Of a stretch of 64,000 bases of DNA, positions 38,155-58,204 are shown one piece after another. Source of the stretch: Moniliella sp. 'wahieum' (Eukaryota; Basidiomycota; Moniliellomycetes; Moniliellales; Moniliellaceae); assembly GCA_003971905.1 (NCBI GenBank), contig RSEE01000077.1, positions 124,001-188,000 on the forward strand, given 5' to 3'. Position 1 is the stretch's first letter. Each line of letters opens with the position of its first letter. The notes under the pieces were generated by a model, which made no database searches, was not told where the DNA came from, and saw only the letters and a program-made list of their open reading frames with translations. Made by a program: the position numbers and the translations under genes.

Positions 38155-38953
38155 ATGCGCTTGCCTTCCCTCTTGCTGCCCTTGTTGGCGCGTTCTTCTC
38201 TCTGCCCGTCATGGCCATGCCCGCCAAGGCGCCGGGGCAAACCAGATCGAGATCGGGTACAAATTTGGTCCCCTTCCCCTTGAGCTGCGCACTTTTACGG
38301 GCACTCATGTGCGCAACTACTACTCCCGCAACGCCTCCACTGATCCCGACGCGCGGGACTCAGCTGGACGGCGTATCCTCGACATTTTCCCTGTACGTAT
38401 GCGTGTTCTTCTTGATGTATCCGTGATGGCTCTTTTTTCCCTTGGGAAGAATATTGTCCGCTGACCTGTCTTGTAACCGCGACGCAGGATGGACACAACT
38501 CGTCCGCAGAAGACTTTTACTTCATTTCAATTGGTTCTCAGTACAAGAACACTTCGACCAGAGGTGTCCAATATGATTCTGAAGGACAATTTTGGGGCCT
38601 AATCCAGTCGGCTTCTAACCCGACGTACGGCATTGGCGCCCCAAATGTTGGCAACGGCAACTCCTTCGGCCATTTTGCTGCGATCCCCCTGTCGTACGAT
38701 GATGATGAGTCGCAGAACCAGCAGCTGTTCAGCGTCGAATTACAACGAGTCAACTCTGATAACGGCACGTCAGACTTTTTCGAATGGTCTTTTACCTTTG
38801 TAGGCGACCAAGACAAGACCGGTGGGTTACGCCGTGACGTTGGCCGACAATGATCACCAAACGGTTCAATGGAACACGCAGGCCCAATCGCCTGGTGGTC
38901 ATGCCCTTGGGTTCCCTTGGGATTCTGCTGAACCTGTCCCTGAAGGCATTTGA
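38155..38953 (+). CDS. Putative secreted protein, paralogue 1 (unknown family)
   Basis: Not a family I recognise. The start is chosen because it gives, across one-base breaks, a signal peptide (FPLAALVGAFFSLPVMAMP). Exon 1 continues NQIEIGYKFGPLPLELRTF and RNASTDPDARDSAGRRILDIF. A 95-bp GTACGT...CAG intron (38393-38487) joins it in frame to DGHNSSAEDFYFISIGSQY. Exon 2 has SASNPTYGIGAPNVGNGNSF, then FEWSFTFVGDQDK and, after a +1 break near 38822, GYAVTLADNDHQTVQWNTQA, ending EPVPEGI with tandem stops TGATGA at 38951-38956. About 230 residues, rich in Asn, Gly, Ser and aromatic residues, with potential N-glycosylation sites and almost no Cys. The conserved TATA element and the splice site shared with paralogue 2 support a real gene. 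Confidence 0.6.
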
Positions 38954-39680
38954 TGATTCACCATCATCACACCGCAATCTGTTTCGTCTCCCTCTTGGGA
39001 CCCAATTTGTGCGGAGCGCCGTCAATGGCAAGCACACGTTCTGATCGATCTGATCTGTCCATTTTTTTTCTGTTTCTTCGTCTCGTCTTTTTTTCGCCTT
39101 TTTGCAAAACACGTAGTAATACGGTGCCATCAATGTCAATGTTCATGTGCGATGCCCCGCATGTTGCCTCTGACGAATGCTTGTGCTCACCCCTCGCAAT
39201 GCGAAGGGCACTGAGATGAATGAACCAACGTTGCGTCCTTTTATGGTAAGGGTTACTGGACTGGTGTGTTTGATTATGTTTTCAACCGTAGATGCATTCA
39301 TTTCCCGGGGGCGTTTATCTTGTAGTAGTGCATTTTTTTAGATTGAAACCTGACGCGAAATGGCTGGATCGACGCCACCTTGATTCATTCGATCCAGGGC
39401 CGGTTTTACCGGTGGCATTGGTATGGGCGAGAGTTCGTGTGCATTCATCAGAGGCAACACCTAGGAACGAAAAGGCGTTCAAAAGGGGGAAAGGGAACAC
39501 AAGAAACAAATGTGGTCGGATAGTACAAAAGAAAACGATATAAAGACAAACAGAATATGAACGCCGCGTGCGCTCTCAATGAGTACATTTTCGCCGGTGA
39601 GGTTCAGCAAGGGGGGCAAAACAGGCAGAGAGTGCTGATGGGTTGATGCGAGATCAGCGCTTGGAACCAACGGGGTGGAT

Positions 39681-40149
39681 AAAGCAATGTCCCAAAAGTG
39701 AATCCGAGAGGCTAAACTGAGGGGGTTGGAGAATTCTGTGTCCGTTTGATGATCCAAAGTTAACCACATACGCCGTAAGTCTTTTCGTAGTTGTTTCATC
39801 ACCTTCACACACGAGGAGGAATGGTCCCCCATGCTGAAGGGCCCTTGTCATCGTTCAGTCTGGTCAAACACGATCCAGAACAAGCGTTTGTTATGCGCCC
39901 ATCATCGTACGGCATAAAGAACGCAGCAAAAGTGAGTGTTTGCGTTGCCACCACCGCCAACGTTATAGGTGCTACGTTTCACGAGTCAGACTACCTTCTT
40001 TCGATTCTAGGATTTTCTCTGGGAAAAATGCTTTCATGGCTGTCATGTCCCCAGAAGTGAGCGTGGAATAGCTGGGGCAAACTGGCTTCATAATATTGAG
40101 GCAGGCTCTCAGACATCCCTATCATGCCCCGCACCCCCGTATACACCAC
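39681..40149. other. Spacer between duplication copy 1 and the repeat copy A
   Basis: No gene or recognised repeat seen in this unique-looking stretch. Confidence 0.4.
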
Positions 40150-41355
40150 GAGGAAGTGCTATGAGATGATATTCTTAGTGCCTTCGCAGCCTCCGCTTAC
40201 TTCGGGTGGAGGGTAGTGCTAGGGTTCCTCTGTACGGCCCTCCGTGGATCGATGACGCTCGCTTAGCCGGTCAAAAGAGTTCTGCTCGCAGGCCGCGCAC
40301 GCCTGTGCTCGCTCCGTATCTCCCTTTTCTCTCTCTCCCGCCTCCTTCCTTTCAATTGAGATGTTACTTGAAGACTTGTGGCTCACCACCTTTTGCTTTT
40401 ACGCCTTGTCTGAAGGCTGCTTTGCAGCTGATCCATAGGATCGCGAGTGCTCCCAAGTCGCACTCTAGCAGTTTCGTCTGCTTCGCTCCGTCAACATCTA
40501 TGCCACAGTGCGATGGGGCTTAGACAGGAGGTGGTTACCAAAAAGGGGCCAACCAACAGTAAGCATCCTCGATCAGTGGGGATCCCTTCCATTCTCGTCC
40601 CTTCCCGCCTTTCTTGTCCAACTCCTGACCGTTTCCAGCCAATAGTTGATTGAGCAATACAGGCAACCTCTCGTCTCCACTTAGCTGCCTCATCTTCATA
40701 ATCCAACCTCGTCCTCCAGCTTTGCATCCGCCCCGTCGCGCGAGTCTTCCTTCTGCCGCGTCGATTCCCTGTACCACAGCATATCGCATGGGTTCCTTTC
40801 ACAGCCACGTCGACAGCCGCCCCTGCCCAGCCTCAGCCCTGGCAGTGTTTGTCCTCCACTGCACCTACCCGTCCCTAATCTCACCGGAGGATTCAGACAC
40901 GTTACTACTCCCACAAGCCGGTGCATACGCAGCCTTGCCACGCATGCGGCGGCCTCGGCTTCACGCCCAGAGGCTTCTCCAGGGCTAATATTATAGGATC
41001 CACCAAATAGCCCAAACCCGAAACTACCGTGAGTCGTCCTTCACCTAAGGGATTGTACCCCACCAACCTGGGTGAGCCCGCTGGCAGGGCCCGCCTGTGA
41101 TAGGGTCGTCGTAATTCACGCTACATGGATCGAGCCCACCACTTCTGGTCCACCGATCATCCTTGCTCCATCCTCTCCCTTGTTCCACCAATTCCTTTTG
41201 TCCCTCCCAGTTTTTGTCTCCCCTTAGTTGTCCCCCCCCCTCTTCAATTGCTCTCCACATCTCCTCCTTGCTCTCCAGCGCTCCCCCTTGTGCCATGGTT
41301 ACTCTTTGCACCACCGCTCCCCTTTTAAGGTATGGGACGGACGCGTCGACGTTCT
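40150..41355 (-). mobile_element. Island repeat family, copy A
   Basis: Member of a four-copy family (others: 45290-45775, 46098-47078, 54917-55790). Read on the minus strand it starts at a conserved GTCGACGCGTCC block (about 41338-41352) and ends at a conserved CACTTCCTCGTG edge. It encodes fragments that match the other copies at protein level, including SKEEMWRAI, GGLDPCSVNYDDPI, EKPLGVK, and TRLDYEDEAAKWRREVACIA. The zinc knuckle seen in the two copies at 46.1 and 55.7 kb is missing or degraded here. No reverse transcriptase, integrase or transposase motif is visible, so the element is non-autonomous or of an unrecognised class. Confidence 0.7.
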
Positions 41356-41480
41356 GATGCACGCTCCGATATAGAAAGTAGAGATTTTCTTTCTTTCCCT
41401 CCCTCTTGTCACGTGTCACGGGCAAAGACGGGCGAGGAAGATCGGAATTGGAGGTCCCTAATCTATCTACTCTTTTGAAT
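41356..41480. other. Spacer next to the foldback element
   Basis: Short stretch between copy A and the left inverted arm; nothing recognised. Confidence 0.4.
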
Positions 41481-41736
41481 CCATATCATTGACAGAGCTT
41501 ACGGCTGGGACAGGGGGAACGCTACGTCTAAACCGAACCGTTCATCTTGCGGGGGTTACTTGGAAGCGCCATTAAGGTCAAGGAACCAGGGGGATCGCCA
41601 GGATATCAGGACCCTCCGGTTCTCGCCATCCGGTCCCGTACCCTAGGAAGCGCGTGGGACACGGATGAACGTGGTTGACATCCGAGCGAGGAACCATTTC
41701 CACTGAGACTTAGTAGCCAACTCCTTCCAATGCGCA
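41481..41736 (+). repeat. Left inverted arm of the foldback element
   Basis: Pairs with 42115-42372. The longest shared tract, about 107 bases, begins near the CTTGCGGGGGTTACTTGG block and runs past CCCTAGGAAGCGCGTG. Differences are a few substitutions and a small GTGT/G indel. Confidence 0.85.
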
Positions 41737-42034
41737 AACAACTTGCCGGCGTTCTTGTTGCATTCTGTTGCTTGTTCAAGCAGCCCACAAGCAGTTCCTT
41801 CTCCCGGCGTTCCAAAGGCAACGCAGTGCTCTCGTGCACCACCCGCCGGTACGCGCTCTGCGCCTCTTGCGTTCCCGTGTCGCGCAGCGTGTGGTCCACC
41901 TCCTTTCCTGATCCTCCCAGTGCTCCAGGCCCCATCACGCGGTAGTCGGTGCGCTGTGCCCTCGGTCCGCGCCTCATCCCATCCTCGTCCTCCATCATCG
42001 TTACTACTCTTTTATAAAAGAGAGAGGGACGCAC
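41606..42034 (-). CDS. Uncharacterised ORF inside the foldback element
   Basis: A 142-codon open frame reading from the spacer into the left arm. From the alternative start at 41998 it begins MMEDEDGMRRGPRAQR and continues with a charged segment (TGTQEAQSAYRRVVHESTAL, LERREKELLVGCLNKQQN) that looks helical and protein-like. The last about 45 codons lie within the inverted arm and look like chance translation. No family recognised. A TATA palindrome at 42007-42022 lies just upstream of the internal start. It may be a captured gene fragment. Confidence 0.3.
   Translation of the reverse strand: MRPSLFYKRVVTMMEDEDGMRRGPRAQRTDYRVMGPGALGGSGKEVDHTLRDTGTQEAQSAYRRVVHESTALPLERREKELLVGCLNKQQNATRTPASCLRIGRSWLLSLSGNGSSLGCQPRSSVSHALPRVRDRMARTGGS
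42007..42022. promoter_or_regulatory. Palindromic TATA element CTCTTTTATAAAAGAG
   Basis: Perfect 16-bp palindrome in the centre of the foldback element, containing TATAAAA on both strands. Promoter function is inferred only from the sequence. Confidence 0.4.
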
Positions 42035-42114
42035 TCAAGAGCCGTTTTCCCCTGGTTTTTTGACGACGCGAGGATACTACCGCACGGCACCAAGACAACG
42101 GGCAAGAGATATTT

Positions 42115-42372
42115 CCGCATTGGCAGGATTTGGCTACTGAGTCGCAATGGAAATGGTTCCTCGCTCGGATGTTTACCACGTTCATCCGTGTCCACACACG
42201 CGCTTCCTAGGGTACGGGACCGGATGGCGAGAACCGGAGGGTCCTGATATCCTGGCGATCCCCCTGGTTCCTTGACCTTAATGGCGCTTCCAAGTAACCC
42301 CCGCAAGGTGAACGGTTTGGTTTAGACGCAGCGTTTCCCCTGTCCCAGCCTTAAGCTCTGTCAATGATATGG
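42115..42372 (-). repeat. Right inverted arm of the foldback element
   Basis: Inverted complement of 41481-41736. Confidence 0.85.
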
Positions 42373-42698
42373 ACGCAATCAGTCAAGAGAATACGCGTGC
42401 CGTTCCCTTCCTAATTATGCTCACACGGCGCTGAGCCCTGGCTGAGCCCGCGGGCTGAGCTCAGCACAACGCCAAGACAAGTAAGGACCCTCAGCAGGTA
42501 GCCTAATCGATAATCCTACGTGCCAGCCACCCTTCCGCCTCTTATCCCGGTCCGCCAGTCACGTCGATCATTGGAACGAACCACGCTCATCGGGCGAGAT
42601 TAATGACGAAAATGACGCGTGATGCGTGGCGGAGCAAGACGTGACGTGACGCGTGATGTTGAGCAAGTCGTAGGATCTCAGCCTTCAGCCTCAACGTG

Positions 42699-42782
42699 CT
42701 CGCTCAGCTGAGCTTCAGCGCTGAGGCTCAGCCTGTCGTGCTCGCTCAGCTGAGCTTCAGCGCTGAGGCTCAGCCTGTCGTG
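42699..42782. repeat. 42-bp tandem duplication
   Basis: Two exact-looking copies of a unit running from CGTGCTCGCTCAGCTGAG to CTCAGCCTGT, itself containing palindromic AGCTGAGC/GCTCAGCT. Only one degenerate unit is present in duplication copy 1. Confidence 0.85.
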
Positions 42783-43420
42783 CTGTTGTCGTTTGCTGGA
42801 AGAATCAACTGGATTTCCCAGGAGGTACGAAAGGAAGGGGCATTCCGTCACGCGTCACATGCAAGGCGTCAGTTGATCGAAGCCCTGGTAAACGCCAAGG
42901 AAGGCTAAGCGCTAATGCAGCTAATGGGTGTGTTGAACGTTGAACGTTGAACGTTGAAGTTGTTGAAGCTTGAAGCTTGAAGAGCTTGAAGCTTAAAGAC
43001 ATCCATGGACCTACTACGGTGTATACGTACCCAGTCCAGAGGCTGAGGCGCGCAGGCGGGCTACGCGGGCTACTCAGACTGAGTACTGACCTCGGACAGA
43101 GAGGCACGCGAGCAGGATCCCACGCGGAAACAAGACAATATGCCCCGACTGGGACCACAGCGCCCCACCGGCCTACACACCCGAGCCACTGAAAAACCTG
43201 CCGAAGCGCAGCGCCAACGGCTACTACATGCTGGGTACCCACGCGGGGTCCAACAGGGCCAACCCAGCGGCAAGCGCCGCACCACTCCACTGTTCTCCGC
43301 GCCCCCATGGCTGCAGGGCCAAGGTGCGGGAGTCCCGTCAACGCGTCACTGCACCAGGAGCATCTTGCCGGGGGGGGCGAGTAGAAGACGTGTGCACGGT
43401 ACCTGTGGGATTTCATTAAT

Positions 43421-43452
43421 CACTAGTCACTAGTCACTAGTCACTAGTCACT
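43421..43452. repeat. TCACTAG heptamer array
   Basis: Four tandem copies of TCACTAG upstream of the copy-2 secreted-protein gene; absent at the matching site of copy 1, which has TTAATCATTAATCACT instead. Confidence 0.85.
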
Positions 43453-43490
43453 CCACACTGACTTTTGCAGTATATTCAGAAGGGACGTGT

Positions 43491-43501
43491 GGTATATATA
43501 T
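43491..43501 (+). promoter_or_regulatory. TATA-type element of the secreted-protein gene, copy 2
   Basis: GGTATATATAT, about 85 bp upstream of the start at 43583, conserved with copy 1. Confidence 0.6.
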
Positions 43502-43582
43502 GGGCCATCTCCAACTTGCCACCCCTTCACCACCCCCTCACCCCACACCGCCACTGCCACTAGCCCTCCGCACTCCCCCAAC

Positions 43583-44376
43583 ATGCGTTTTACCTTCCCT
43601 CTTGCTGCCCTTGTTGGCGCGTTCTTCTCTCTGCCCGTCATGGCCATGCCCGCCAAGGCGCCGCGGGCAAACCAGATCGAGATCGGGTACAAACTTGGTC
43701 CCCTTCCCCTTGAGCTGCGCACTTTTACGGGCTCTCATGTGCACAACTACTACCCCCGCAACGCCTCCACTGATCCCGACGCGCGGGACTCGGCTGGACG
43801 ACGTATCCTCGACATTTTCCTGTACGTATACGTGTTCTCCTTGACATATGCGTGACGGCTCTTGTCTCCTGGGAAGAGTATTGTTCGCTGACTTTCTGTC
43901 TCGCAACCGCGACGCAGGACGGACACAACTCATCCGCAGAATACTTTTACTTCATTTCAATTGGTTCTCAGTACAAGAACACTTCGCCCAGAGGTGTCCA
44001 ACATGATTCTGATGGGTACTTATGGGGCCTGCTGCAGTCGGCTTCGAACCCGACGTACGGCATTGGCGCCCCGAATGTTGGCAACGGCAACTCATACGGC
44101 CATTTTGCTGCGATCCCCTGTCGTACGATGACGATGAGTCGCAAACCAGCAGCTGTTCAGCGTCGAATTAGGCAGATTCAACTTGATAACGGCACGTCAG
44201 TATGGAGCCGATGGTCCCTTGGCTTGTAGGCGACAAAGACAAGAACGATGGTTACGCCGTGACTTGGCCGACAATGATCACCAGACGGTTCAATGGAACA
44301 CGCAAGCCCAATCGCCTGGTGGCCATTCCCTTGGGTTCCCTTGGGAGTCTGCTGTTCCCGTCCTGAAGGCATTTGA
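43583..44376 (+). CDS. Putative secreted protein, paralogue 2 (possibly decayed)
   Basis: Paralogue of 38155-38953. Here the signal peptide and the rest of exon 1 are in one frame: MRFTFPLAALVGAFFSLPVM, then EIGYKLGPLPLELRTFTGS and STDPDARDSAGRRILDIF. A 96-bp GTACGT...CAG intron (43822-43917) follows, but exon 1 lacks one C before the donor, which breaks the junction frame. Exon 2 reads HNSSAEYFYFISIGSQYKN and ASNPTYGIGAPNVGNGNSYG before further one-base losses near 44117 and 44144, and the TGATGA stop region aligns at 44374-44379. Substitutions relative to paralogue 1 are mostly conservative in exon 1, but the 44150-44240 part is rearranged. It may be a functional paralogue with sequence errors or a pseudogene; I cannot decide. 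Function unknown. Confidence 0.5.
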
Positions 44377-45289
44377 TGATTCACCATCAACACACCGCAA
44401 TCTGTTTCGTCTCCCTCGGGACCCAATTTGTGCCGAGCTTCAATGGCAAGCACACGTTCTGATCGATCTGATATCTCCTTTTTTTCTTTTTTCCCCTGTT
44501 TCTTCTTCTCGTCTTTTTTCGCCTCTTTTGCAAAACACGTAGTAACACGGCGCCATCAATGTTCACATGTGATGCCCCGCCATGTTGCCTCTGACGAATG
44601 CTTGTGCTCGCCCCGAGTGGCACTGAGATGAATGAACGAACGTTGCGTCTTTTGCGGAAAGGGTTACTACTAGACTGTGTTTGAGGATGGTTTCAACCGT
44701 GGTGTAGATGCATTCATTTCCCGGGCAGACGTTTATCTTGTTGCAGTGCATCTGTTAAGATTAAAGCCTGACGCGGAGGAAGGGCTGAACCGTTTCCCTT
44801 GTTCCTCCTGTAGTGGCATACACCGCAAAGGGCCTGAAGGGATAGCGCTTATGGAGTATGGACTACGGACAGGCGAAATCCGTTGAGACATCAAGCTTCC
44901 CTAGTGGCGATGCCACAATTGCTATATGATAGTGTCACGGGCTGCGGCGGACACGACTGATGGTCCGACCGAAGCTAGGCCCGCTTGCTCCGCACATGCC
45001 CAGTAGAGCGTCCTTCGCAGGCCAACCAAGTGTGATGATGGTTGGCTAAATTAACTATCGTGGCCGAAGGGCCATGCATCCGCGCGACAATAATCGCCCC
45101 CGCCCAAGTCCAAGTCGGCCGGCCTAAATAAGGCCACCGAGCTTTCAGTGTCGTGGCGACGTCTGTCGCCCCGTCTCCGTTCCCTTTTCCTTTCTCGTCG
45201 TCGCGCCTGCGGCGACTAACCCCGCTTTTGACATGTCTTCCTTTCTACACCCCCTCTTGCATCAGTTTCCGTTTTGATCTTGCCTGTAC

Positions 45290-45775
45290 CCCTGTCCCCC
45301 ACCCTCCATTCTCGTCCTTTCCCGCCATAGTACCTATCCTGTCCGACTCCTGCCCGTTTTCCAGCTAATTGATCCAGTACAGGCAGCTTCCTCTTGCTTT
45401 AGCGTCCCCGACCTCGTCCTCCAGCAATCCGTCAGTCCAGCCGCGCGAGCCCTCTTTCTATCGCGTCGATTTCCAGCGTCGATTCGTCTCAGTTGAGGCA
45501 ATGTTTGCCCCCTTTGCCTCCCTCCCTAAGTCCCGGAGGCTTCAGACACGTTACTACGGCCCAAGCCGGTGCAGACGCGGCCTTGCCACACGTGCAGCCG
45601 CCCCACCAAAGGCCTCACCTCGTCCCTAATAGCTCCGCTCGGATTCACCAATCAGCCCAAGCCCGAAACTACCGTGAGTCGTCCTTCCGTCTTCCGTCTC
45701 CTGATAAGGGATTGTACCCCAAGAACTTGGGTGAGCCCCCTGGAGGGGCCCGCCCATGACATATAGCAGCTGGCA
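45290..45775 (-). mobile_element. Island repeat family, copy D (partial)
   Basis: Matches copy A between its CATTCTCGTCC block and its GGGTGAGCCC(G/C)CTGG block. More diverged than the others (roughly 70-75% by eye), and both the 5' zinc-knuckle part and the 3' edge are missing. Confidence 0.65.
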
Positions 45776-46097
45776 AAAGGAAGAAGGCATGCAGGGAGCT
45801 GCCACATGTCATGGACGATCGATGAAGGGTGAAACAAGAGGGCCGACAGAATGCCGAGTGCCTCCATTCGACAGCTCTCATCGTCTGTGCCCACCGCAAC
45901 GCCGCGGCTGGCCTCACAGCCATGGCACAGGCCACGGGCAAGGTGCTTTGTCCCTCTATTTTTAACCTCACCGGCAACCGACAACAACAGATGGAAAAGA
46001 AAGGAGAGGCGGAAATGGATACAAGTGGGGGCAAAGGGTGGTAGCAACGGGGGAGGGGACAGATAAACACCCAATAACACGGTAGGAATCGAGAACG

Positions 46098-47078
46098 AGT
46101 CGCGTCGACGCGTCCCTCCACTCCCTTTAAATGCCCCCTACCCGTACTCACCGCCGGTGCCCCCATTGCGGCACCAACGACCACACTCGCGCACAGTGTT
46201 CCTTCAATCCACGCACGCCGAGAGTTGTGCCGCCACTGCCGTCGCCATGGCCACAAGCTGCCGACTGCGGCAGTTTCGGGTTTGGGCTATTTAATGGAGA
46301 TCCGAGCCGAGGAGAAGCCTTTGGGCGTGAAGACGAGGCGTCCGCACGCGCGGAAAGGCTGTCTATGCGCCGGATTGGGGGTAGTAACGTGTCTGAAGCC
46401 TCCTGAGCTTAGGGACAGGTTAGATGCTGTGGAGGACAAAGACTGCCAGGGCTGAAGCTGGGCGGGGGCGGCTGTGGCGTAGCTGTGAAAGGAGCCCACG
46501 CGATACGCTGTGGTATCGCGTGACTGGGCGGATGGAACGCTGGAGGACGAGGTTGGATGATGAAGATGAGGCAGCTAAGTGGAGACGAGAGGTTGCCTGC
46601 ATTACTCAATCAGTTGGCCGGAAACCGTCAAGAGTTGGACAAGAAAGGTGGGAAGGGACGAGAATGGAAGGTGGGATAAAGGATCCCCTGATCGAGGATG
46701 CTGACTGTTGGCTGACCCTGTTTTGGTAACCCCCCGTCTAAGCCCCACCGCACTGGCATATAGATGTTGACAGAGCGAAACAGAGACGAAGCTGCTAGAA
46801 TGGTTCAGCTGCAAAGCAGCCTTCAGACAAGGCGTGAAGGCAAAGTGGTGGCCCATAAGTCTTCAGGTAACGTCTGTAGGGAAGGAGACAGGAGAGAGAG
46901 AAGGGAGATAAAGCGAACAGGGCGCGAGCCATGCGAGCGGAACTCTTCCACGCCCGGTTAAGTGAGCGTCACCGATCCACCGAGGGCCGTGCAGGGGAAC
47001 CCCGCACCTCCCCCTCAACAGAAGCAAGCGAGGCTGCGAAGGCACTAAGAATATCATCCGATAGCACTTCCTCGTCTA
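46098..47078 (+). mobile_element. Island repeat family, copy C, with CCHC zinc knuckle ORF
   Basis: Full-length member on the plus strand. The TCGCGTCGACGCGTCCCTCC block (46097-46116) precedes the start codon at 46131. The 3' edge is GCACTTCCTCGTC near 47064-47077, the same as in copies A and B. Encoded peptide pieces are given under the ORF entry. Confidence 0.75.
46131..46729 (+). CDS. Gag-like protein with CCHC zinc knuckle (repeat copy C, broken)
   Basis: The N-terminus reads THRRCPHCGTNDHTRAQC, a perfect C-x2-C-x4-H-x4-C zinc knuckle. A second, incomplete one follows in another frame (VCRHCRRHGHKLPTA, last Cys absent). Further conserved pieces are EEKPLGVKTRRPHARKGCLC, TRLDDEDEAAKWRREVACIT and DPLIEDADCWLTLFW, the last ending at 46729. 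The pieces lie in several frames. The same peptides occur in copies A and B, so the region was once coding. CCHC knuckles of this spacing are typical of Gag or nucleic-acid-binding proteins. No polymerase domain is visible. Confidence 0.5.
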
Positions 47079-47462
47079 GTATAACACAGACCAAGAACAA
47101 AGAGCGAGACACTCGAGACAGGTATATAATTGAATGAATGGCAACATGATCTTCAGCAAAACTATATATGACATGGCATGTACGATTGAAACGACTGGCT
47201 CCCTCTCTTTTGATAAGAAAGCACATGGGCGGACGGACAATGGGGCGACTTTCATTGCCAGGAATGCGGTCAGTTGATGGCCACACTTCGGCCATCGGGA
47301 TGGATGAGATTGCTCAACGATCCCACGGCAGGAACTGAGAGTGGGCTAGCCCCTAGTTGGCGCAGCTGCTGTCAGAAACGCCCCGTAGCATGGCATCAAT
47401 CAGCATCCACCCGTACTGATAAAAACGGGAAAAGATCATTACAGTGAGAATCCCCGTCAAAC
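47079..47462. other. Spacer between repeat copy C and duplication copy 2 right part
   Basis: Unique-looking sequence with nothing recognised. Confidence 0.4.
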
Positions 47463-47757
47463 AACGCCACATTGATTCATTTGATGAACAGTCAGGTCGC
47501 ATTGGTATGGGCGATAGTTCACGCGCATTAATCAGATGCAACATTTGGGACATCACATGCCATCATGATAAGGCGTCCAAAAGGGGGGAAGGGAAAACAA
47601 GAAACAAAGATACAAGAGAAAAGGAATCAAAGAAAACAGATCATGAACGCATGTTCTCTCAACGAGAATATTTTTCGCTGGTGGGTTTCAGCAAAAGGGG
47701 GCAAAACAGAGAGTGCTGATAGATTGATGCGAGGTCAGCGCTCGGAACCAGAGATGT
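47463..47757. repeat. Segmental duplication block, copy 2 (right part)
   Basis: Aligns with 39376-39680: GGTATGGGCG, AAAAGGGGGAAAGGGAA(A/C)AC, and CAGAGAGTGCTGAT...GATGCGAG segments occur in the same order and spacing. Confidence 0.8.
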
Positions 47758-50700
47758 ATACAGCACTACCCTTCTGCGTCCCGTCCTTTGCAGTGGGTGG
47801 CTCAGTCTGCCATACTATCGCTCCTCTTTTTGATCTATCACAACCGGATACTGTGGTTCTTGCAAACTGAGGGTAGTAGCGCGATTGATGTATGGGCGTC
47901 CGCGCAAGGCTCGCTTTCTCGCCAATGTCACCAGATTTGGTCGCTCCCAAAACCCCAGACAATTAATTGTGGTTGTGTAGGAGTCACACCATATCCTGTG
48001 GTTCGATGGACCGATTGATCATAAGAATCTGTAGCAAAAACAGCGACTCATTTCCTGCTGTTCTGACTAACCTACATTTTTTCCCTTTTGGGACTGAACG
48101 CGGCATGTCCACATGTTTCCGCGTTTCCCCGAAAGCTCTGTGTCGGCCTCGCTACTACCACAGAATGTGAGCACTGAACGGCGTATTGGAATAAGGAGCT
48201 TCTGCGACTGACTCGCCCCGAAGACTGGTGCAAGTTCGAAAGGAATGAAAACTGACTGGCGTGCCTCAGGGTCCGCGCGGTCCTAGGACGGATGTCAACA
48301 GTCTGCCTACTAATGATGATGAATCCTCAGTTCTTAATCTTTACAACCATATGCATGACACCTTGCAATCAAGAACCCAAATAGGATGTTGTCTCTGGGT
48401 TTACGCAACCTCACCCGCTTTCTGAAGGGAATAGCAGGTGCGATAAACGTGCTCGGGACATGCGTGGGGTAGGCGCATTGAAGCACCTGAACGGAGGTGA
48501 ACCTCTTTTTAGGGATTGTCGGTAATGAGGGCATGTTTCACGCAGGACAAAGAACCAGGGAGTTTCTATGCCTCTGTGGACTGTCGAGTTAAGGAATTTG
48601 CTTTGACTGCCCAACAATGGCCTGTGTATCAGGCAAAGGACTGTTGACGACAAGACCCTTTCTTCCTTCTGCTGATCCCCCTGTTGACGATGGCACTGGG
48701 ATACTTCCAAGATGAATACCAGCGGGATTATAGATCACTGAAAAAAGTAATTCACATCGGAATTCCGATGCCAGAAACGGTTCGGTTGTGTATACATGCC
48801 TATTCGAGTGTAGGCGAGCTACATGCGGTTGGCAGGCATTGAAGGTGTCGCTGTACTCTAACGCAATACCGATTTCACTGGTCCCTGATTTGTTTGGTGA
48901 ACGAGACTCACAAGACCTCGGATGACAATGATTCCCCAAGTTTCATTAATGATATCAACATACATGCCTCGTACCTTGAAGCTGTTTCTGACGGTAACGT
49001 CTGATGAGACCGGGATAGTCCTCGAGGGTGATGCAATCGCACTAGTGGTGGTTATGGTGGTCTAAGCCAAACAACAAAGCCTACAGAGGAACATCAAGCA
49101 GCAAATTACCACCAGGGGCTAAGCTGCGGAACAAGGAAAAACAAAAGAGAAAAACAACGGAACTCCTAGGCCTGAGGAGGAACTGAAGGGACATTGGCCA
49201 AAGCACGAGCCACTGCTGGCTCAACAACGTGAAATGACCCGATCGACTCCGATTGTTTGTGTCCATTCGTAGTAAAGGGTACTACGCTACGCAACAACAT
49301 ATCCTCGAGATTAACGTGGTTTCTTCCATTTTCGATAGCCACAGCCAGCTGACATCGAGCCTTCTTAATTATGCCCACGTCAACCGGTCTTGTTTATCCC
49401 AATGTCCCTCTTGGTCTGTTTCCAGTCAGCATTTGCGGTATCATCGGAGTGCCATTGCCCCGCCATCCATTGCAGACGTTTGAAGCCTAGTAAACACCTA
49501 CAGCTTCGCCTTACATTGAGCGTCTCGTTCCCGTTATGAGATTTCCTTCTCTTGCCGTTTCGCGTATCTGACTAAGTGTTAGACACCTTTTCCTACTAAG
49601 TATGAGCCCCATTGTCAGAGGCACGGATTTTGATTATTTTCCCCTTTCTACATTTGTAGTGTCTAGTCTTTATCGATTCTGTCGCTTCGGACGCTTCCCT
49701 ACTGCCCTAGAGTGTGTATCTATATAAAGTCTCGCCGCTCAAACTGTTGCCTCTATTATATGCCGTAAGAGCTCTTCGGGTTCATAATCTCACATAGCTG
49801 CACAACAAGCCTGTTCATTTGCGCATACCGTATATTTCCCCACTCCGCTATCCCAGGCATTGTACCCTGAAGTCTCGGGACTTGCATTAACGCTTTCGTG
49901 GGTGACTGCGAAATGAGATCTGTGGCACTGCGACCGAGCCAGTCAATGAGTGTGGGCAAAAGAGTGTCCGCATTAGCGTTTACATCGTCGTTTTCCCAAA
50001 CCGAAACAGTGTGGCACCCGCTGGAGTAGTAATAACGCGTCTGAAGCCTTCAAGCTTCAAGGCACAAGGACGGGAAATGGAAGCGGAGGACAAACCCTAC
50101 CAGAATGGGACTGGAGTGGGACTTGAGGCAGGGGGCTGGGAGAAGGCCCACGTGGCATCACTGAGACTTTGTTTCGACGTGGCCTGTGTGGAAGGACCAC
50201 ATGCGAGTTGTTGACTGGTAGCGGACTGGGCGCGTGGTGATGGAGAAGGGAGACGAGGGCGGCTATGCGAAGAGACGGCCAAGAGAAAACTTAGCGGCCT
50301 GTACGAGTCAGGTTTAAATCATTGGTCAGTGACAGAAGGGGAGACGCGGACGGACCGTCGGGGGAAACCACGAACCATTGCTTACAGACAGGCACTAATA
50401 TAGGGAAACGACGCAATAAAGGAAGAACGGGGAGCAGGCGAAGACGGGGGGGGGGGGGGTCAGGGGGGGTCATATGCACCGGACGGACAACCTAGAAGTA
50501 GAAAGGTAACTGTGGTAGACTGTACGGGACGATATAGTTGCAAAGGATACTGACAGAGTTCGGGGGCATGATTGTGGCCAAACGCCAACTTTCCTTTGGT
50601 AGAAGGCGAATATTATTGCGCGGAAACGCAGGGTTGGTGTGTTGCGGGGTTGAGGCTGGCAACAGACTCTTCCGGATATAAGTATAGGTTCCTCCTCCGA

Positions 50701-52253
50701 AAAGGAGAGACGGCCATGTCATCCGTTTTTTTTTCGACCAACCCGGGGTCAGGGCGAGAAAAGGTGAAAAGAGCGCGTAGGCTGTCGGAGCTGGGACTGC
50801 CACAGCCCGTCATCGCCCGTGACAGCAGTACGGGTTCTTTGCCTGCCTCCTATGTATATAGCCCCGCACTGAACTAAAAGTGTGAGGTTTTTTTAGAAGC
50901 AGAAACGAGCAATCGCCTGTTCTACCTCGTACTCATTCACGATGACTCAACGGGTCAGAACTACTACTTGTTGCGACAGAGCCACCATTGAATCTTTTAG
51001 TTCTTTGAGGTTGATTCGTACCAATTCACATTCGCGGCCTTAATTGTGGATGCTCGCCCGGGTGGTGACCATACTATGGGTTTGGTCATGAGCTTAGAGA
51101 CCTTTGGGAATATACGGGGGAGCGGATGGCTGGTTGTAGAGGGGATGCCGTACGGCAACTCTGCCTTTTCGAAGTGGACCGCGAGAGATCGGGAGATCTT
51201 GGGTGGGCGAGGGAATCCGGAGAGAATCTGGGGGTGGGGACGGTCTATATATTGTCAGTGCGAAGGAGGATAACTGCTAGGCACTTTGGGGTTGGGAGGG
51301 TGGTGTAGAAATCAGAGAGGCATAGGCTCAGGAGTTGAGCTATGAAGCCTCAGATCTCTATAATGATCCTGGTTCCCCTGCGATGTCCTAAATAAGCTGT
51401 GGCAGAAGGAAGGCACAAGTGCGGGTTGAACGTTGAACCCAGACTGAGGAAGAGAAGAAGAGGAAGGCGAATAAGACTAGACCAAAGCATATAGGGGCTA
51501 TGGGCTTGGTGTCAGCATGTGGAAGATCTCTTCAGTGTGTGATCTCGAGGTGGCTGTTGTCCCTTAGATCCCCGTGAGGGCAATATATTCTTTAGTTAAA
51601 GCTTAAAGGTACAAAGCTCTGACTTAGCACTGACTTCAAGGTCTGATCCTCTGGACCCAGGCCCACAACGAACCCGAGGGCTGAGCTACTCTTGAACCCG
51701 ACAAGCCACAAAAGTCATCACCGCCCCGGAAAGCTACACACTGGTTATTGGAAAAGCGGGACAGCTAGTACCTACTATGGCATGCATCGTCATCCCTCTG
51801 ATAGAAGACACAACATATATGTACTGGAGTGCCATTATCATAGGGTGGTTATTCAGCCGCTCAAGGAGCGCGTACATTCAAAAGTTAATAACAAAGAAGA
51901 CGAAATACTGGGTAAGAAACAAAACAAAATATGCAGGGACAGAGGCCAAAAATAGAAGGTGATGGCGAGAGAGAGGCCAACCACAGTATGTCTGTCAAAA
52001 TATGGGTCTTGCACTGCAAGACATATGAATGCCGGAGCATTTAGCAGAAAAAAAAGGGCGGGAAAGGGGGAAGAGTGTGGAAGGGGAAGAAGTAACCCCC
52101 ACTGTGAAGCTTCGGTAGGGTTATTTCGCGCCAGCGAAGCCGAATATTAACGCCAATTCGAGGATGGGATGGACACTGAGAGACCGGATTGCGGCAGTGT
52201 CAAAACGTCAGGAAAGACAGGTACTCGGGGGGGAATCAAGGGTGGCCAACCAG
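47758..52253. other. Gene-poor sequence of the island
   Basis: No conserved gene, RNA or clear repeat found. Open frames are short and carry no family motif. A possible protein-like trace lies on the minus strand at 48334-48939, in all three frames, but I could not identify it. A G14/G7 tract is at 50446-50468. TTCAAGCTTCAAGG (50049-50062) is another copy of the dispersed heptamer. Base composition is more balanced than in the gene-rich flanks. Confidence 0.45.
50446..50468. repeat. Poly-G tract
   Basis: About 14 G followed by TCA and 7 G. Potential G-quadruplex; the true length is uncertain. Confidence 0.7.
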
Positions 52254-52832
52254 TCATGCGTGAGAGTTGAAGGTCTCCTTCAAGCCACCTCCACCACGGA
52301 AAGCACCAGCTGCAATGAAGCCCACAACAGTCAGCATCAGCGATGTGAGGATAAAGTTGATCCAGCCAAAGGCAATCAGTGTCTCGTTGGGCCGAGCAAT
52401 ACTTGATTCCGGTAGTGTTGTAGCTGCAGTTGATGCCGCCATGCAACGACTTGTCAAAGCGGCAGAAGCAGGAGCCAAAACACCCAATCGATGAAATGAA
52501 AACAAAGTGAGAAAACAATTGAGGTAAAGACACCGCCCACGCCGGATACGAAGGCGACAACCTGATAAAGAGCAGCGAAGCGGGTCAGTGGCCGAGAGAA
52601 CAGGAGACGCGGGTTATACGGACATAGGCGGTGGCAAAGAGGAAGGAGAACCAGCCAACAAAGAGGAAAAGGCGGACACGGCCCTTGATCCCCCGGCCAG
52701 GGTGCTTGGTCATCCTTGGCGTTGTAGTCGTGGACAAGCACGGAAGCAATGATGGCCACGACAAACGAAAACACCCGAGGATGGAAAGGGAAATGGGGCG
52801 CCGCGGCGCACAACAGTGCTTGCATCGACCAT
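52254..52832 (-). CDS. Tetraspan membrane protein, MARVEL/Nce102-like
   Basis: The start at 52832 begins MVDASTVVRRGAP. Four membrane spans follow, the pieces read across one-base breaks: VFSFVVAIIASVLVHDYNAK, RLFLFVGWFSFLFATAYV, VVAFVSGVGGVFTSIVFSLC plus FIDWVFWLLLL, and TLIAFGWINFILTSLMLTVV. Between spans 3 and 4 lies a loop with two Cys (GGINCSYNTTGIKYCSAQRD). The C-terminus is GAFRGGGGLKETFNSHA, stopping at 52254. Four spans, the Cys loop before the last span and the short Gly-rich tail resemble fungal MARVEL-domain proteins such as Nce102, which sit in eisosomal plasma-membrane domains. About 190 residues, the usual size. It is the only protein gene I can support between 44.4 and 58.2 kb, apart from repeat-borne ORFs. 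Confidence 0.58.
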
Positions 52833-54916
52833 TGTGAAGGAGAAGGGGGGGGGAGCAAGACGGGGATAGGATATGGGGGTGGGACAGAGGGTTGACAAGA
52901 GGAGGTGGAGGAGGTGGTGGTGGCGCGAGAAAGGGACCGAACGGCGGCAAGCAAGGCAAATGCATTCGAGCAGAGCGCAAGGACAGGATGCGAGGCGATG
53001 AGAGGCCTGAGGGCGATGAATTCAAAGCATCGCGCCCGCCGGGCAGAGGGGGTGTGTGCTGCGCGTGTGTGCGCAACGCATCGTGGGCAGAAGCGCTAAT
53101 GAATGCACGGATGCAGGAGGGTGTGACAGCGCTGCAGGACGGCGGGGGATGGGGTTGTGTGGCTGGCGAGCATGTGAATGGAGCACATGCGATGACGGCA
53201 TGGCGTTGGCGCTTGTGAGCACGATCGATGCACGCTGATCGATTAGCGCTTAGGCTAAGCTTAGCGCTTAGCCTAAGCGCTAGCCCCGCCTCGCCTGTGC
53301 TCTGTCCCTTGTTTGTTGCTTGCTGTTCGACAGGGGATGCAGCTTGCAGTGGGCTGCTGCAGGGGGGCGGATGCCAGAGGAACAGGGGAGGGGGGCAGTA
53401 TCACATGTGAGGGTAGCATATCACATGTATATGTGATGTCATAAGTCATGCATCATGCATCCTTGCAAGCAGCCCTCTGTTGGGCACACGTGCTGTGTAG
53501 CTGCTCCGAGGGCGCCTGGCCGCCATCTCCTACCACCACCCCTCTCCGAGCGTGCAGTGCCTATGACTGGCTGGGGCTTTTTCCCAGTGCCTAGTATAAG
53601 CATCTTGTTGGTCGTTGGTGACTCGGCATCTGCCGTCATGAACAACTAGGGGAATAAAGGCTCTCTGCTTGGGTCCGGGGGCCGTATCGCATATAGCAGT
53701 TGAATTAACTCCTCTTACAGGTCCACCACCGGCGTTACCAGCCCCTCGTGTACAATCTTCTGACACGCCACCTTTTGGCCTCCTTTTGACTCGAGCCCCT
53801 TGGGATGTGGTCAACCTCTCCACTCCGGTCCTCCACACGCGCTGCTATAGTCAAACCGTACGCCTGTTTGTGACCCTTCTGTTCTCCTGCCGCGTTTCAA
53901 CTTCTCTCTCACACCCGGCACCTCTCCTATAGGTTCTTTTTCCCGTAGGCCTCAATTGTCCCAGTACTTCATTCCAAGCATCAACGTTGAGCAAACCTTT
54001 CATCTGCCAGCAAGAGTCACATCAGCATCACCTAGCCTTTTGTTCCACCGGCCTAACTCTCTCTCTGGCGCCTCTACTTCTCGGGGAGACATTGCCCATC
54101 GCCGTGTATCGTTGCCCTCAGTGTGGAGCAAGAACCCCTCATTGCTCAAGGTTACTTGACTTTGCTTCCGAATATATATTCTCGCTCACACGGATATATA
54201 AGCCGTGACGTGTGCCCCTTTTCAGGTACAACTTCGTGCCCTTTTTTTCGCGAATAATCGCTCTTGTGGGCAGGCGCATTGTACAGTGGGACCAGCTAGT
54301 AGCCATATCTCTTCACAAGCAGAGCCACCTTCGTGTTTTCATCCATCCAGAACGGAAAATAGGGGGGCAGAGACCCCGGCTATGACTGACTTGATGAGAC
54401 ACTATGTTGAAGTATACTACTTAGCGCACGGTCCAAAAAGGATCCCCGATACATCGCGCATCTGTGGATGTGATGGTGTGGTACTAGGATCTCCTTTTCT
54501 ACCACTACATAGTAATTATATAAGATGGAGGGGGAGTCTCGTATCTAGCACTCTGTGCATTCAAGATGGTAATTCCAATTGGAGACAAGGCAAAAGTTTC
54601 GCGCGAGACACAGAGGGGCTGTGACTGCTATCCCAGGGGGGGTGGGGAGAAGGCCGGGTTACCAATCCTGTATTTCCATATGGTAGTAGGGAAAGAAAGA
54701 AGATAGAGGGGGATGCAGTGCCAGTACTGGCACCTCCAATGCAGTGTTGTGTGCGTACTTGGCCATTACTGACTTGGTAGGCACACGTTGATCACTGCGG
54801 CGGCAAATAGAGGTGGGGCCAGGCTGATTAAACAGTGGTATTCATCCACCCTCATCACCTTGGCCGTCAATCGGGCGAGTACCTCCCGTGTTGTCAAAAT
54901 CCCGATCAGCTCCAAT
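52833..54916. other. Gene-poor sequence right of the MARVEL-like gene
   Basis: Contains an AGCGCTTAGGCTAAGC palindrome array (53243-53282) and ATCACATGT/ACATGTGAT inverted units (53400-53440). The rest is unremarkable. No supported gene. Confidence 0.45.
53243..53282. repeat. AGCGCTTAGGCTAAGC palindromic repeat
   Basis: Alternating inverted copies of TAGCGCTTAGGC and GCCTAAGCGCTA, able to form a hairpin; related to the heptamer array at 111-135. Confidence 0.8.
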
Positions 54917-55790
54917 CCAGTACGAGGAAGTGCTATCGGATGACATCCTTAGTGCCTTCGCAGCTCCGCTTGCTTCTGTAGGAGGGGAGTGCTGAGGTTC
55001 CCTTGCACGGCCCTCGGTGCATCGGGTGACGCTCACTTAACCGGCGGAAGAGTTTCGCTCGCAGGGCGCGCGCCCTGCTCGCTTTATGCCCTCCTCTCTC
55101 TCCTGTCTCCTTCCCTTCAATTGAGATGTTGCTGAAGACTTGTGGCTCACCTCTTTGCCTTCACGCCTGTCTGAAGGCTGCTTTGCAGCTCCTCATAGGA
55201 TCGCGAGTGCTCCCAAGTCGCACTCTATTTTTCATCTGCCCAGTCGCGCGAGCCTTCCATCAGCCGCGTCGGTTCTCCGTACCACAGCGTGTCGCGTGGG
55301 TTCCTTTCACAGCCACTGCCATGCCTCAGACCTGGAAAGTGTCGTCCGTCCACTGCATCTACCGTCGCTCAGCCCGGAGGCTTCAGACACGTACTACCCT
55401 CCAGCCGGCGTATAGGGTCGACGTAATTCACGTTACATGGATGGAGCCGGCCACCTCTGGAGCATTGACCATCCTTGCTCCATCCTTCCACCAATCCCCT
55501 TTGCCCCCCCTCTCTTCTTGTCCTGCCCCCCTCTTCTTGTCCTGCCCCCTCTTCTTGTCCTTCCCCCCCCCACCTTATTTTTGTCGCAAAGACCCCAATT
55601 GCTTTCCACATCTCCTCCTTGCTCCACCGCTCCGTGGCAGCCTTGTAGCCAGGTCGACGGCAGTGGGGGCACAAACGTGGGAGTGGATTGAAGGGGCACC
55701 GTGTGCCAGTGTGGTCGTTGGTGCGGCAATGGGGGCACCGGCGGTGAGTACGGGTGGGGGGCATTGTAAGGGAGTGGAGGGACGCGTCGA
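54917..55790 (-). mobile_element. Island repeat family, copy B, with CCHC zinc knuckle ORF
   Basis: Minus-strand member with the same 5' block (GTCGCGTCGACGCGTCCCTC, complement of about 55778-55797) and the same CACTTCCTCGTAC 3' edge near 54918-54930 as copies A and C. Confidence 0.75.
55369..55764 (-). CDS. Gag-like protein with CCHC zinc knuckles (repeat copy B)
   Basis: A 131-codon open frame starting MPPTRTHRRCPHCRTNDHTG, a C-x2-C-x4-H-x4-C knuckle (last Cys in TGTRC). A second partial knuckle (LCPHCRRPGYK) directly follows. Downstream are ERWSKEEMWKAI and a Gly/Glu/Arg-rich stretch, then GGRLHPCNVNYVDPI. The same start peptide, differing in a few residues, opens the ORF of copy C, and SKEEMW plus the NYVDPI segment recur in copy A. 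The best-preserved reading frame of the family. Likely nucleic-acid-binding and Gag-like; no enzyme domain seen. Confidence 0.55.
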   Translation of the reverse strand: MPPTRTHRRCPHCRTNDHTGTRCPFNPLPRLCPHCRRPGYKAATERWSKEEMWKAIGVFATKIRWGGEGQEEGAGQEEGGRTRREGGQRGLVEGWSKDGQCSRGGRLHPCNVNYVDPIRRLEGSTCLKPPG

Positions 55791-58204
55791 CGCGACTCCG
55801 TCATATGCCCGATAGTCGGCGCAGCCCCCCCCCCCGTCACGTGCAGGTGGGGGAGCAGTAGGGTTCAGGTCGGGAGCAGTAGGGTTGTTGGCGGATTTCT
55901 TTGGGTCCTGCCATATGGTAATAGAAGATCATACCCCGGCATGAGTGTGATGAGGGAAGGCCGAGAGATGGCATATTACTTGTAACAAGCTCCTTCGCCT
56001 TTTGACCACACGAGGCAGTGCGTCGTATGGCTGTTCAAGCGATCTCGTCTCCACGCGCCACGCGTTCACACTCCGATTGTCATTATCCCAGTTCCAAAGC
56101 CGCTTCAAAGGTGTTGTCGAACCCCATCGTTGGGTGTGCCATTCAGTAGGGCTGTTGAAAAAAAGGGAGTTGCTGTTTTCTCATAGACACAGATGAGTGG
56201 AACCACGGATCACCTACTTGCTGAGCTACGAACTCCTGCATTGTATCTTCAGACGACATGGTGCATCAGAAAGAGCTATACTATGTCAGGACGTGGGTAC
56301 TAACATTAGGATCGGAGATCGAGGACCGCTGAACCGACTGTCCATCTCTTTCTTCGCTTTGTGTGTTTGTATGTTGTGTACCTCTCGCCGTTCATTGCGA
56401 GAGCCCATCCAAACGCAAGCTAGGGGGTACCGAGATTCTCACAGCACTCTCCTTCGGGGGCGTAGAGTTCCCTAGGGGTAGCAGACCCCCACGACTGCGA
56501 ACCGTCAAGCTCACCTGCAGGTACATCTCAGCAAAGATATATGTCTCACCTCCATTTCCTCCCCCCGAGACACCCTGTCGTGCACGGCCTCTCTCCATGG
56601 ACTGCCTTACCAGGACCGAAGGCACGCCTCCCACTGTTGTGGGTCCTTCATTTTTGTTCTGCGTCGTACATTTCGAGGAGTACACTTTCGTGTGATCAAC
56701 GAACAGCCGGTGACCTCGTTGTAGCTGCAGTACGTGCCAGTGTAGTGTATACGTGTAGAGCTGACGACCGCATTCTCCTTTACTAAGGAGCATAGACTCT
56801 CCAAGAAGATGTGCAAGATGATAGATCATCTTCCTAGTATTCCCAAGAGGTTTTCGTCCCCCAGGACCGTTAAAATCCATATATGCGGAGAGAGAAAAGT
56901 GCCTGTTTTGGCCAGTACATCGTCCACAGCTTTTTGTCTTTTCCGCACCACACCCTCGTTCATCCCCTTCTTGCATGGCACTTACCGCATCTACTCATGT
57001 ATCCAGTCACCATCAATTGATGGCCACCAATCTTTCGTCCTTTGGTAAAACACGTCGCCCGGTGCTGGCACCGGAGACGTATTCATACTAGTCTATATCG
57101 GCCGGGGGGCTTTCCCAAGCGTTCCCCTGCTTCCGGATTTCAAGCTGCTCTCACAGACCACGCAGCGGTTTAGCGCCCTTTATTCTGGAATACCATTTCC
57201 ACTTCTCTATGCTAAGAATCTCCCCCCACACACCGCTAACTAGACCCCCGTGAGAAAGTTATCTGCCAACAAACGTTTGCGTTTGCGGTATACACGCCAG
57301 ACGTATACTAACGAGGAGGACCACTGCGGGCCTACGGCCCGGTCAGCTTGCTCTGCCACCGTCGCCACCGTTCTCCTCCCTCACCACCTAAGCCAACGTT
57401 CCCCCGGTCCACCGTTCCACCCCCGTCGCCACCAGGGGATAACAATGAACATTCTCAGTGCCCCCTCGATAAGCAATTAGGCGAGCGGGATTTGCCCCCC
57501 CTCCTCCATATCATCATATCGTAAACCACGTTGCTGGTGGAACCCCCGAATCCAACGGCCATATAGTCATGTCGGCCAGTGCGTTTTGCGGGAGAGAAAG
57601 AGGAGAACTGATCGTGACTAAAAAAGGATATACGGAGGATGTGGATACGGACACTGTGAAAGTTTGCCCTTGGTATTGTTCACGGTCATGGCGAGGAGCA
57701 TGCCCGCTGCAACGTCTGTTCCCCCGGGCTAGTATCAATAAAAGAGCCCCAGGAACAGGGCCGTCAAGCGGCGATGACACTGCTGGGTTTGGCCTGGGCT
57801 TGAATTGCGAGAGACTGGGGCCGGTGCGGGGGCTCATCTGCTTCGTTCGTCCTATCTTTATCGTTCCTTCGGAAGGACCACCCAGAGCCCTAGGACAGCG
57901 GCGATCGGATCCACAGCAACACAGAGCCTGATGAACTCAATTCACAGCGGCCGTCCCCAGGTCACCTGAGCAGCGAGCGATGGGTAAAAAATGCAATGTT
58001 GGAACGGGGGCATTGAAATTGAAATGGACTACTGGCCCGTAGAACCGCTGAGCCTGACCGGTGACGGTGGCGGGCGGCCTTAGGGTTGCTGTGCCTTATG
58101 TCAGCACGGCCACGGGGCGTGCTCGTCGCAGCCGCATTTCTCTGCGCTTCGGCTGCGAAGCCCAAGGGGTTGTCTCCGCCCGCCCACCACCTCTGCCGCC
58201 GGCC
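55791..58204. other. Right end of the gene-poor island, upstream of UPF1
   Basis: No conserved gene. There is a direct repeat GGGAGCAGTAGGGTT (55851-55890). A short region just before UPF1 (58060-58200) is GC-rich and probably its promoter and leader. The 56.2-57.9 kb stretch has only short open frames without motifs. Confidence 0.45.

What the first reader, a model, noticed from the sequence alone, without database searches (positions are those of the whole stretch)
40150..55790. Four-copy repeat family encoding CCHC zinc-knuckle peptides, without a recognisable enzyme
Copies at 40150-41355 (-), 45290-45775 (-), 46098-47078 (+) and 54917-55790 (-) share DNA edges (GTCGACGCGTCC at the 5' side, CACTTCCTCGT at the 3' side in three copies). 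They also share peptide segments such as SKEEMW, TRLDxEDEAAKWRREVACI and a C-x2-C-x4-H-x4-C knuckle. Protein-level conservation between diverged copies implies a past coding function. No reverse transcriptase, integrase or transposase is seen in any copy, so this could be a non-autonomous element carrying a Gag-like gene, or a captured domesticated gene family.
Basis: partly seen in the sequence, partly recalled or inferred. Interest (0 to 1): 0.7.

Follow-up and report, generated by a model that had tools for sequence, protein, structure and literature searches.

The report
LINE-dependent repeat with zinc-knuckle relic
The four look-alike stretches are decayed copies of a roughly 0.9-1.5 kb parasitic DNA repeat, present more than a hundred times in this eukaryotic genome, in which no enzyme was found and which was most likely copied by the machinery of a LINE retrotransposon; the shared zinc-knuckle peptide looks like a relic of an old gene rather than a maintained one.

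Summary
Its 3' 16-mer occurs 146 times in the 69.5-Mb genome, a 5' signature 72 times. The zinc knuckle is real: 40 of 62 examined copies keep at least one C-x2-C-x4-H-x4-C motif, 9 keep two, and one shows a tandem array of three, the third degraded. But protein selection is not seen: pN/pS is 0.99 across two knuckles (20 distinct copies) against 0.23 for a LINE reverse-transcriptase control. Copies keep the 3' end and are often cut at the 5' side, down to about 24 bp; a few have target-site duplications. They adjoin an abundant R2-like LINE more often than local density predicts: 9 of 144 ends against 1.56 expected. Best reading: a non-autonomous non-LTR retroelement with a fossil zinc-knuckle ORF, copied by LINE machinery. 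No autonomous relative with its 3' end was found in what could be read. Its ends mirror, in reverse complement, the LINE's ends; unexplained. New member of a known kind.

The parts
40148..41385 (-). Copy 1 of the repeat (E): 3' end CACTTCCTCGT at 40148, 5' end ATCTCTACTTTC at 41385; belongs to a subfamily without a recognisable knuckle
45291..45760 (-). Copy 2: decayed internal fragment, neither terminus present
46098..47075 (+). Copy 3: 3' end intact, lacks the first ~110 bp of the 5' side
46158..46199 (+). Relic CCHC zinc knuckle CPHCGTNDHTRAQC in copy 3
54922..55929 (-). Copy 4: both termini present (ATCTTCTATTACC ... CACTTCCTCGT)
55696..55737 (-). Relic CCHC zinc knuckle CPHCRTNDHTGTRC in copy 4
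41475..41998 (-). 5'-truncated fragment of the R2-like LINE ('LINE-A') upstream of copy 1, its 3' end roughly 90 bp from the start of E; BLAST range 41487-41998, repeat arm from 41475
42025..42379 (+). Second LINE-A fragment, head to head with the previous one (both 3' ends pointing outward)
57311..57433 (+). Short LINE-A fragment

Best explanation
The repeat (E) is a non-autonomous non-LTR retroelement. Early stops give 5'-truncated copies; jumps of the enzyme between E RNA and LINE RNA give the direct E-LINE junctions. The abundant R2-like LINE of this genome (LINE-A) is the most likely enzyme source. Near its 5' end E carries a fossil ORF with up to three tandem CCHC zinc knuckles, probably from the ORF of a LINE or Gag-type ancestor, which was not visibly maintained by selection during the spread of the present copies. 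SHOWN: copy number, ends, 5' truncation with a fixed 3' end, a neutral substitution pattern, an excess of junctions with LINE-A. INFERRED: the RNA intermediate, its orientation, LINE-A as enzyme source, the origin of the knuckle ORF.
For: Copy number: 146 3' ends and 72 5' signatures. 5' truncation with a fixed 3' end: among 29 loci chosen because they have the 3' end without the 5' signature (L041-L070 without L045), similarity lengths of about 24, 60, 65, 114, 141, 157, 251, 355, 389 and 871 bp among others; conversely 2 of 9 examined copies with an unpaired 5' signature lacked the 3' end (L092, L096). Target-site duplications, by eye in 11 truncated copies: clear in 3 (CTTAGTATATA in L051, ATACAA in L042, AATGGA in L066), doubtful in L068. 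Target preference: A at +6 in 28 of 37 and T at +7 in 26 of 37 downstream flanks. LINE-A junctions: 9 of 144 E ends in 69 loci lie within 12 bp of a LINE-A boundary, 1.56 expected from random flank positions of the same loci; six at 0-1 bp. LINE-A encodes RVT_1 (E=3.1e-17), nearest PDB sequences are R2 proteins (E=1.3e-08), 607 3' ends. Dimers: a 3' end fused directly to a 5'-shortened copy in L034 and L082. Neutral pattern.
Against: No duplication was seen in 7 of the 11 truncated copies (L043, L050, L056, L058, L060, L061, L064). Full-length copies mostly lack one: a shared run of 6 nt or more in 3 of 28 (4 with AT added), about 0.9 expected; under a 7-bp model only the base next to AT matches clearly above chance (53% against 26%, 34 copies). 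LINE-A's own 3' end (..GTCAATGGAATGCACACAACATAGAGAT) does not resemble E's 3' end; instead E's two ends are close to the reverse complements of LINE-A's ends (in some copies ATCTCTAAGTT vs AACATAGAGAT; CCTCGT vs ACGAGG), which fits the opposite RNA orientation. No autonomous element with E's 3' end was found in the limited sequence that could be read. E-LINE junctions occur in both relative orientations, and shared target preference could add to the excess.
Confidence: 0.7

Rival explanations
1. Same kind of element but in the opposite orientation: the RNA runs from ACGAGGAAGTGC to ...TTAGAGAT, carrying LINE-A's own two termini, so E is an internally replaced or deleted LINE-A derivative (a SIDE) and the zinc-knuckle relic lies antisense.
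For: In that orientation E begins ACGAGGA and in some copies ends AACTTAGAGAT, like LINE-A's ACGAGGAG ... AACATAGAGAT. The conserved target AT then lies at the priming junction. LINE-A mini-copies with both termini seem to exist: LINE-A 5' and 3' patterns lie about 240 bp apart at C1:171331-171578 and C9:908912-909148 (coordinates compared by eye). Junctions of E's AGAT end with LINE-A in L036, L037 and L059 fit this direction.
Against: Truncated copies would then be mostly 3'-truncated, the reverse of ordinary LINE behaviour. The last ~50 bp at the CCTCGT side are shared by divergent copies (for example L041 and L044, 56 nt identical), while the other end differs between subfamilies and its window is the most variable one, which however includes some 20 bp of flank. 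The CCHC array is read on the other strand: 32 motifs forward, 0 reverse, in 37 bodies.
Confidence: 0.22
2. A captured or domesticated host gene family with a functional zinc-knuckle protein.
For: A zinc-knuckle array is recognisable, 92 matches to it exist, and the first knuckle alone gives pN/pS 0.58, lower than in the five other frames (copies chosen for the motif).
Against: pN/pS 0.99 through two knuckles, differences by codon position 1110/1203/934; 785/717/766 for the first knuckle; 19% of gaps of up to 30 nt are multiples of three; 22 of 62 copies in frame through two knuckles; defined termini and truncations are those of a mobile element.
Confidence: 0.03
3. A DNA element moved by a tyrosine recombinase or rolling-circle enzyme, with the five variable bases before AT as a coupling-like sequence.
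For: Frequent spacing CCTCGT-N5-AT and nested copy L033b, where bases between the element and AT do not match relatives of the host copy.
Against: Graded 5' truncation, target-site duplications in some truncated copies, chimeras with LINE-A. The host stretch of L033b is itself variable between copies, so that empty site is not decisive.
Confidence: 0.05

Closest known systems
Sadhu non-autonomous non-LTR retroposons of Arabidopsis (PMC2848041, abstract and outline read)
   Same: Moderate-copy, divergent, non-autonomous retroposons attributed to mobilisation by LINE machinery from their target sites.
   Different: Different host kingdom if this is a fungus; no zinc-knuckle relic or mirrored LINE termini is mentioned in the abstract.
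SIDEs, short internally deleted elements of R2 and CR1 (PMC3414825: abstract and section 'In vivo template jumps' read; PMC6740152: abstract and outline read)
   Same: Non-autonomous partners of a LINE; R2-type enzyme; template jumps joining other RNAs to LINE copies.
   Different: R2 SIDEs consist of the partner's 5' and 3' ends in the same orientation; E's 3' end does not match LINE-A's 3' end, and its termini match only as reverse complements.
Magnaporthe WEIRD / Mg-SINE / MGL-LINE chimeras (PMC2104539, abstract and outline read)
   Same: A non-coding RNA and a SINE found fused to a LINE in a fungus, explained by template switching of the LINE reverse transcriptase.
   Different: E is a separately amplified family with its own fixed 3' end; E-LINE junctions are a minority of its copies (9 of 69 loci).
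TR-GAG elements of plants (search listing only; definition recalled)
   Same: Non-autonomous element whose only recognisable protein part is Gag-like.
   Different: TR-GAGs are LTR elements; no long terminal repeats were seen in E, and its ORF is a neutral relic.

Membership tests
Non-LTR retroelement moved by target-primed reverse transcription | Fixed 3' end with graded 5' truncation | tested here: met
   Lengths from about 24 bp upward with intact 3' end; 3' end missing in 2 of 9 examined copies with an unpaired 5' signature.
Non-LTR retroelement moved by target-primed reverse transcription | Target-site duplications | tested here: inconclusive
   Clear in 3 of 11 truncated copies by eye (no control run); weak in full-length copies.
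Non-LTR retroelement moved by target-primed reverse transcription | RNA intermediate | not testable with these tools
   No RNA data held.
SIDE of LINE-A | Partner's 3' end at its own 3' end, partner's 5' end at its own 5' end | tested here: inconclusive
   Met only if the RNA runs opposite to the favoured orientation.
SINE | Recognisable tRNA, 5S or 7SL head (pol III promoter) | tested here: not met
   No Rfam family in window 38000-57000 at gathering scores; up to E=1 in L086, L087, L021, L016, L092, L002 only one weak lncRNA match outside the element (E=0.89); the one tRNA in the window is at 27627. Length is also atypical (recalled). A promoter without such similarity is not excluded.
LTR / TR-GAG element | Long terminal direct repeats | tested here: not met
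   The two ends read from 37 copies are unrelated by eye.
zf-CCHC (PF00098) protein | Score over the curated cut-off | tested here: not met
   Best 19.3 bits against 20.8 (L092, 7 proteins); no zf-CCHC match for 7 window ORFs. PDB sequence matches include AIR2, retroviral NC and LIN-28, E from 0.0037.
Functional protein-coding gene family | pN/pS well under 1 | tested here: not met
   0.99 through two knuckles, 0.71 for one conserved peptide; LINE-A control 0.23. First knuckle alone 0.58 in motif-selected copies.

The most novel reading that the evidence does not exclude
E is an 'antisense partner' of a LINE: an element whose two ends are the reverse complements of the LINE's own ends, so that its RNA ends in the complement of the LINE's 5' end, yet is still accepted by the LINE's machinery. 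If so, an R2-type enzyme would handle RNAs of both polarities, and E would have arisen from an antisense or head-to-head LINE transcript that picked up a zinc-knuckle ORF.
Probability: 0.12. Interest if true: 0.6.

Novelty: new member of a known kind. Interest (0 to 1): 0.33.

Why it matters
It shows how a striking peptide signature can survive as a fossil in a repeat without visible protein selection, so shared peptides among repeats should not by themselves be taken as coding. It adds a high-copy, kilobase-sized, apparently LINE-dependent non-autonomous family, with natural LINE junctions, to a eukaryotic (probably fungal) genome. The mirrored termini would, if not a coincidence, be a testable lead on what R2-type reverse transcriptases accept as template.

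Tried and rejected
Tyrosine-recombinase/Crypton idea from the N5-AT spacing: set aside after graded truncation and duplications appeared. Helitron idea (A|TC 5' end): no CTRR 3' end seen by eye. Structured or pol III RNA: nothing useful in Rfam. LINE endonuclease PF14529: no match in the genome. A second LINE family (L099, L100): no similarity to E and no CTTCCTCGT in the stretches read; L100 has the bare hexamer CCTCGT at three places. Search for an intact parent by the knuckle protein: 92 matches, longest frame 246 aa; the one I followed up (C134, 243-aa frame, L102) is another decayed copy. L045 (3' 16-mer, almost no other similarity, in a coding-looking stretch) was judged chance and left out of counts. 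A first script on the knuckle region timed out with no output and was redone with BLAST. Selection of rows: searches use copies chosen by the knuckle pattern (23, 27 and 20 distinct; pN/pS in frame 0.58, 0.97, 0.99; one search includes frameshifted tails); (62 copies, not chosen for the motif, some partial or lacking the region) gives the retention count. In one search only 2 of 30 copies kept the length of the knuckle segment in that alignment, so its knuckle figures were not used. L094 and L095 look like second copies of the L084 and L083 insertions, and L044/L065 and L047/L052 share flanks, so these are not independent. Literature: the listings named no such family; it has no name to search for, so they looked only for the kind.
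Full report
OBSERVATION. The window lies at C77:124001-188000 of an unnamed eukaryotic genome of 69.5 Mb. That it is a fungus is my inference, not a test. The four stretches are copies of one repeat family, here called E. The 981-bp copy at 46098 has 76 matching pieces genome-wide, itself included (a lower bound). I lined up 37 copies and read their edges. The 3' end is fixed at ...GATAGCACTTCCTCGT. (for example ATCTTTAATTACC, ATCTCTAAGTTCC, ATCTTCTATTACC); a script located it in 28 of the 37, the other 9 being truncated, diverged or missed. The 3' 16-mer occurs 146 times (up to 1 mismatch, reversed-pattern control 0) and a 30-mer from the 5' region 72 times (up to 3 mismatches, control 0). 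Of the 100 listed 3' ends, 55 pair with a 5' signature on the same strand within 6 kb, 54 of them 287-1355 bp apart and one at 3392 bp.

CODING? All ratios here are uncorrected pN/pS (Nei-Gojobori counts). In a 37-copy alignment no window shows convincing codon periodicity (1 of 19 windows with p<0.05), and 19% of gaps of up to 30 nt are multiples of three. For the stretch through two knuckles in 20 distinct in-frame copies the ratio is 0.99 (other frames 0.73-1.13), with 1110/1203/934 differences at codon positions 1/2/3. For the first knuckle alone, in 23 distinct copies chosen for having it, the ratio is 0.58 against 0.81-1.20 in the other frames, but differences by codon position are even (785/717/766); choosing copies with the motif lowers this ratio. 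The same method gives 0.23 on four LINE-A reverse-transcriptase copies, so it can see selection.

YET THE KNUCKLES ARE REAL. Of 62 examined copies (some partial, some of a subfamily without the region) 40 have at least one full motif in a forward frame and 9 have two. The best copy, L092, reads CPHCCTNNHTRTRC - CRLCRRPGHKAANC - CLFWKTDDHPTRLC, a regular array of three whose third has lost a cysteine; L008 and L094 have that third knuckle as CLFCKTDHHPTRLC and CVFCKTDDHPTRLC. Pfam zf-CCHC matches L092 at E=0.0012, under its cut-off; PDB sequence matches include AIR2, retroviral nucleocapsid and LIN-28 knuckles. Seven window ORFs gave no zf-CCHC match. I conclude that a zinc-knuckle ORF existed in the ancestor and is now, as far as these tests see, a neutral relic.

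HOW IT MOVES. Of 45 listed 3' ends without a 5' signature within 6 kb, I fetched 30 anew; the others were already held or not fetched. One (L045) was judged a chance match. Among the other 29 are copies cut at the 5' side with similarity lengths of about 24, 60, 65, 114, 141, 157, 251, 355, 389, 871 bp and others, with the 3' end intact, as the selection requires; others in the set have an alternative 5' end or internal deletions, and two pairs (L044/L065, L047/L052) share flanks and are not independent. As the converse test, of nine copies with an unpaired 5' signature seven have the 3' end or a damaged form of it and two lack it. By eye, 3 of 11 truncated copies have clear flanking duplications (11 nt in L051, 6 nt in L042 and L066), L068 is doubtful and 7 show none. 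Full-length copies show little duplication. Downstream of the 3' end, position 6 is A in 28 of 37 and position 7 is T in 26 of 37 copies. Tandem or nested copies occur (L033, L034, L082), and L084 carries an inverted piece of the 3' end at its 5' side.

THE LINE. The genome has an abundant LINE ('LINE-A'): 607 matches to its 3' pattern, RVT_1, nearest PDB sequences R2 proteins, a CCHC motif upstream of the reverse transcriptase and, by eye and from recalled motifs, a restriction-like endonuclease region. Its 5' end is ACGAGGAG..., its 3' end ...ACATAGAGAT. In 69 E loci not selected for LINE content, 9 of 144 E ends lie within 12 bp of a LINE-A boundary, 1.56 expected from random flank positions of the same loci; L021, L023, L036, L037, L059 and L061 are at 0-1 bp. 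L008 also abuts LINE-A by eye but was not counted by that script; L077, L078 and L079 were found or fetched because of nearby LINE ends and are not counted. Junctions of both relative orientations occur. Template jumping is documented for R2 (PMC3414825, abstract and one section read) and for a fungal LINE (PMC2104539, abstract read).

ORIENTATION. Against this, E's ends are near reverse complements of LINE-A's ends, and the conserved target AT lies at the other junction.

VERDICT. A non-autonomous, probably LINE-dependent non-LTR retroelement family with a fossil zinc-knuckle ORF. The element is ordinary in kind; the mirrored termini, the knuckle array and the size are its odd features. Sadhu elements and SIDEs are the nearest described kinds that I saw (abstracts).

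Noticed in passing
C1:171331-171578 and C9:908912-909148 (coordinates): LINE-A 5' and 3' end patterns lie only about 240 bp apart, suggesting short internally deleted LINE-A copies (SIDE-like).
   Followed up: partly
window 41475-42379: Two 5'-truncated LINE-A fragments head to head with both 3' ends outward, as if both target strands had been primed.
   Followed up: partly
window 39022-39357 / 44440-44775 and 39411-39669 / 47495-47750: Another set of dispersed direct repeats (blocks 82-91% identical) near small ORFs.
   Followed up: no
flanks of L002, L004, L006, L029, L055: Several copies sit in GTCACATG/GTGACATG-type short repeats, which makes target duplications there ambiguous.
   Followed up: partly
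L056, L061: Two copies share about 18 bp directly after the 3' end (gagaaataatatcaccga), most of which matches LINE-A 5' sequence in L086/L087.
   Followed up: partly
L099 (C2:6720-9700): A second, diverged LINE family near a contig end, with reverse-transcriptase-like reading frames.
   Followed up: no
E body, e.g. L021, L102: A G-rich short tandem repeat (GGACAAGAAGAGGGGGG-like units) of variable length lies inside the element.
   Followed up: no
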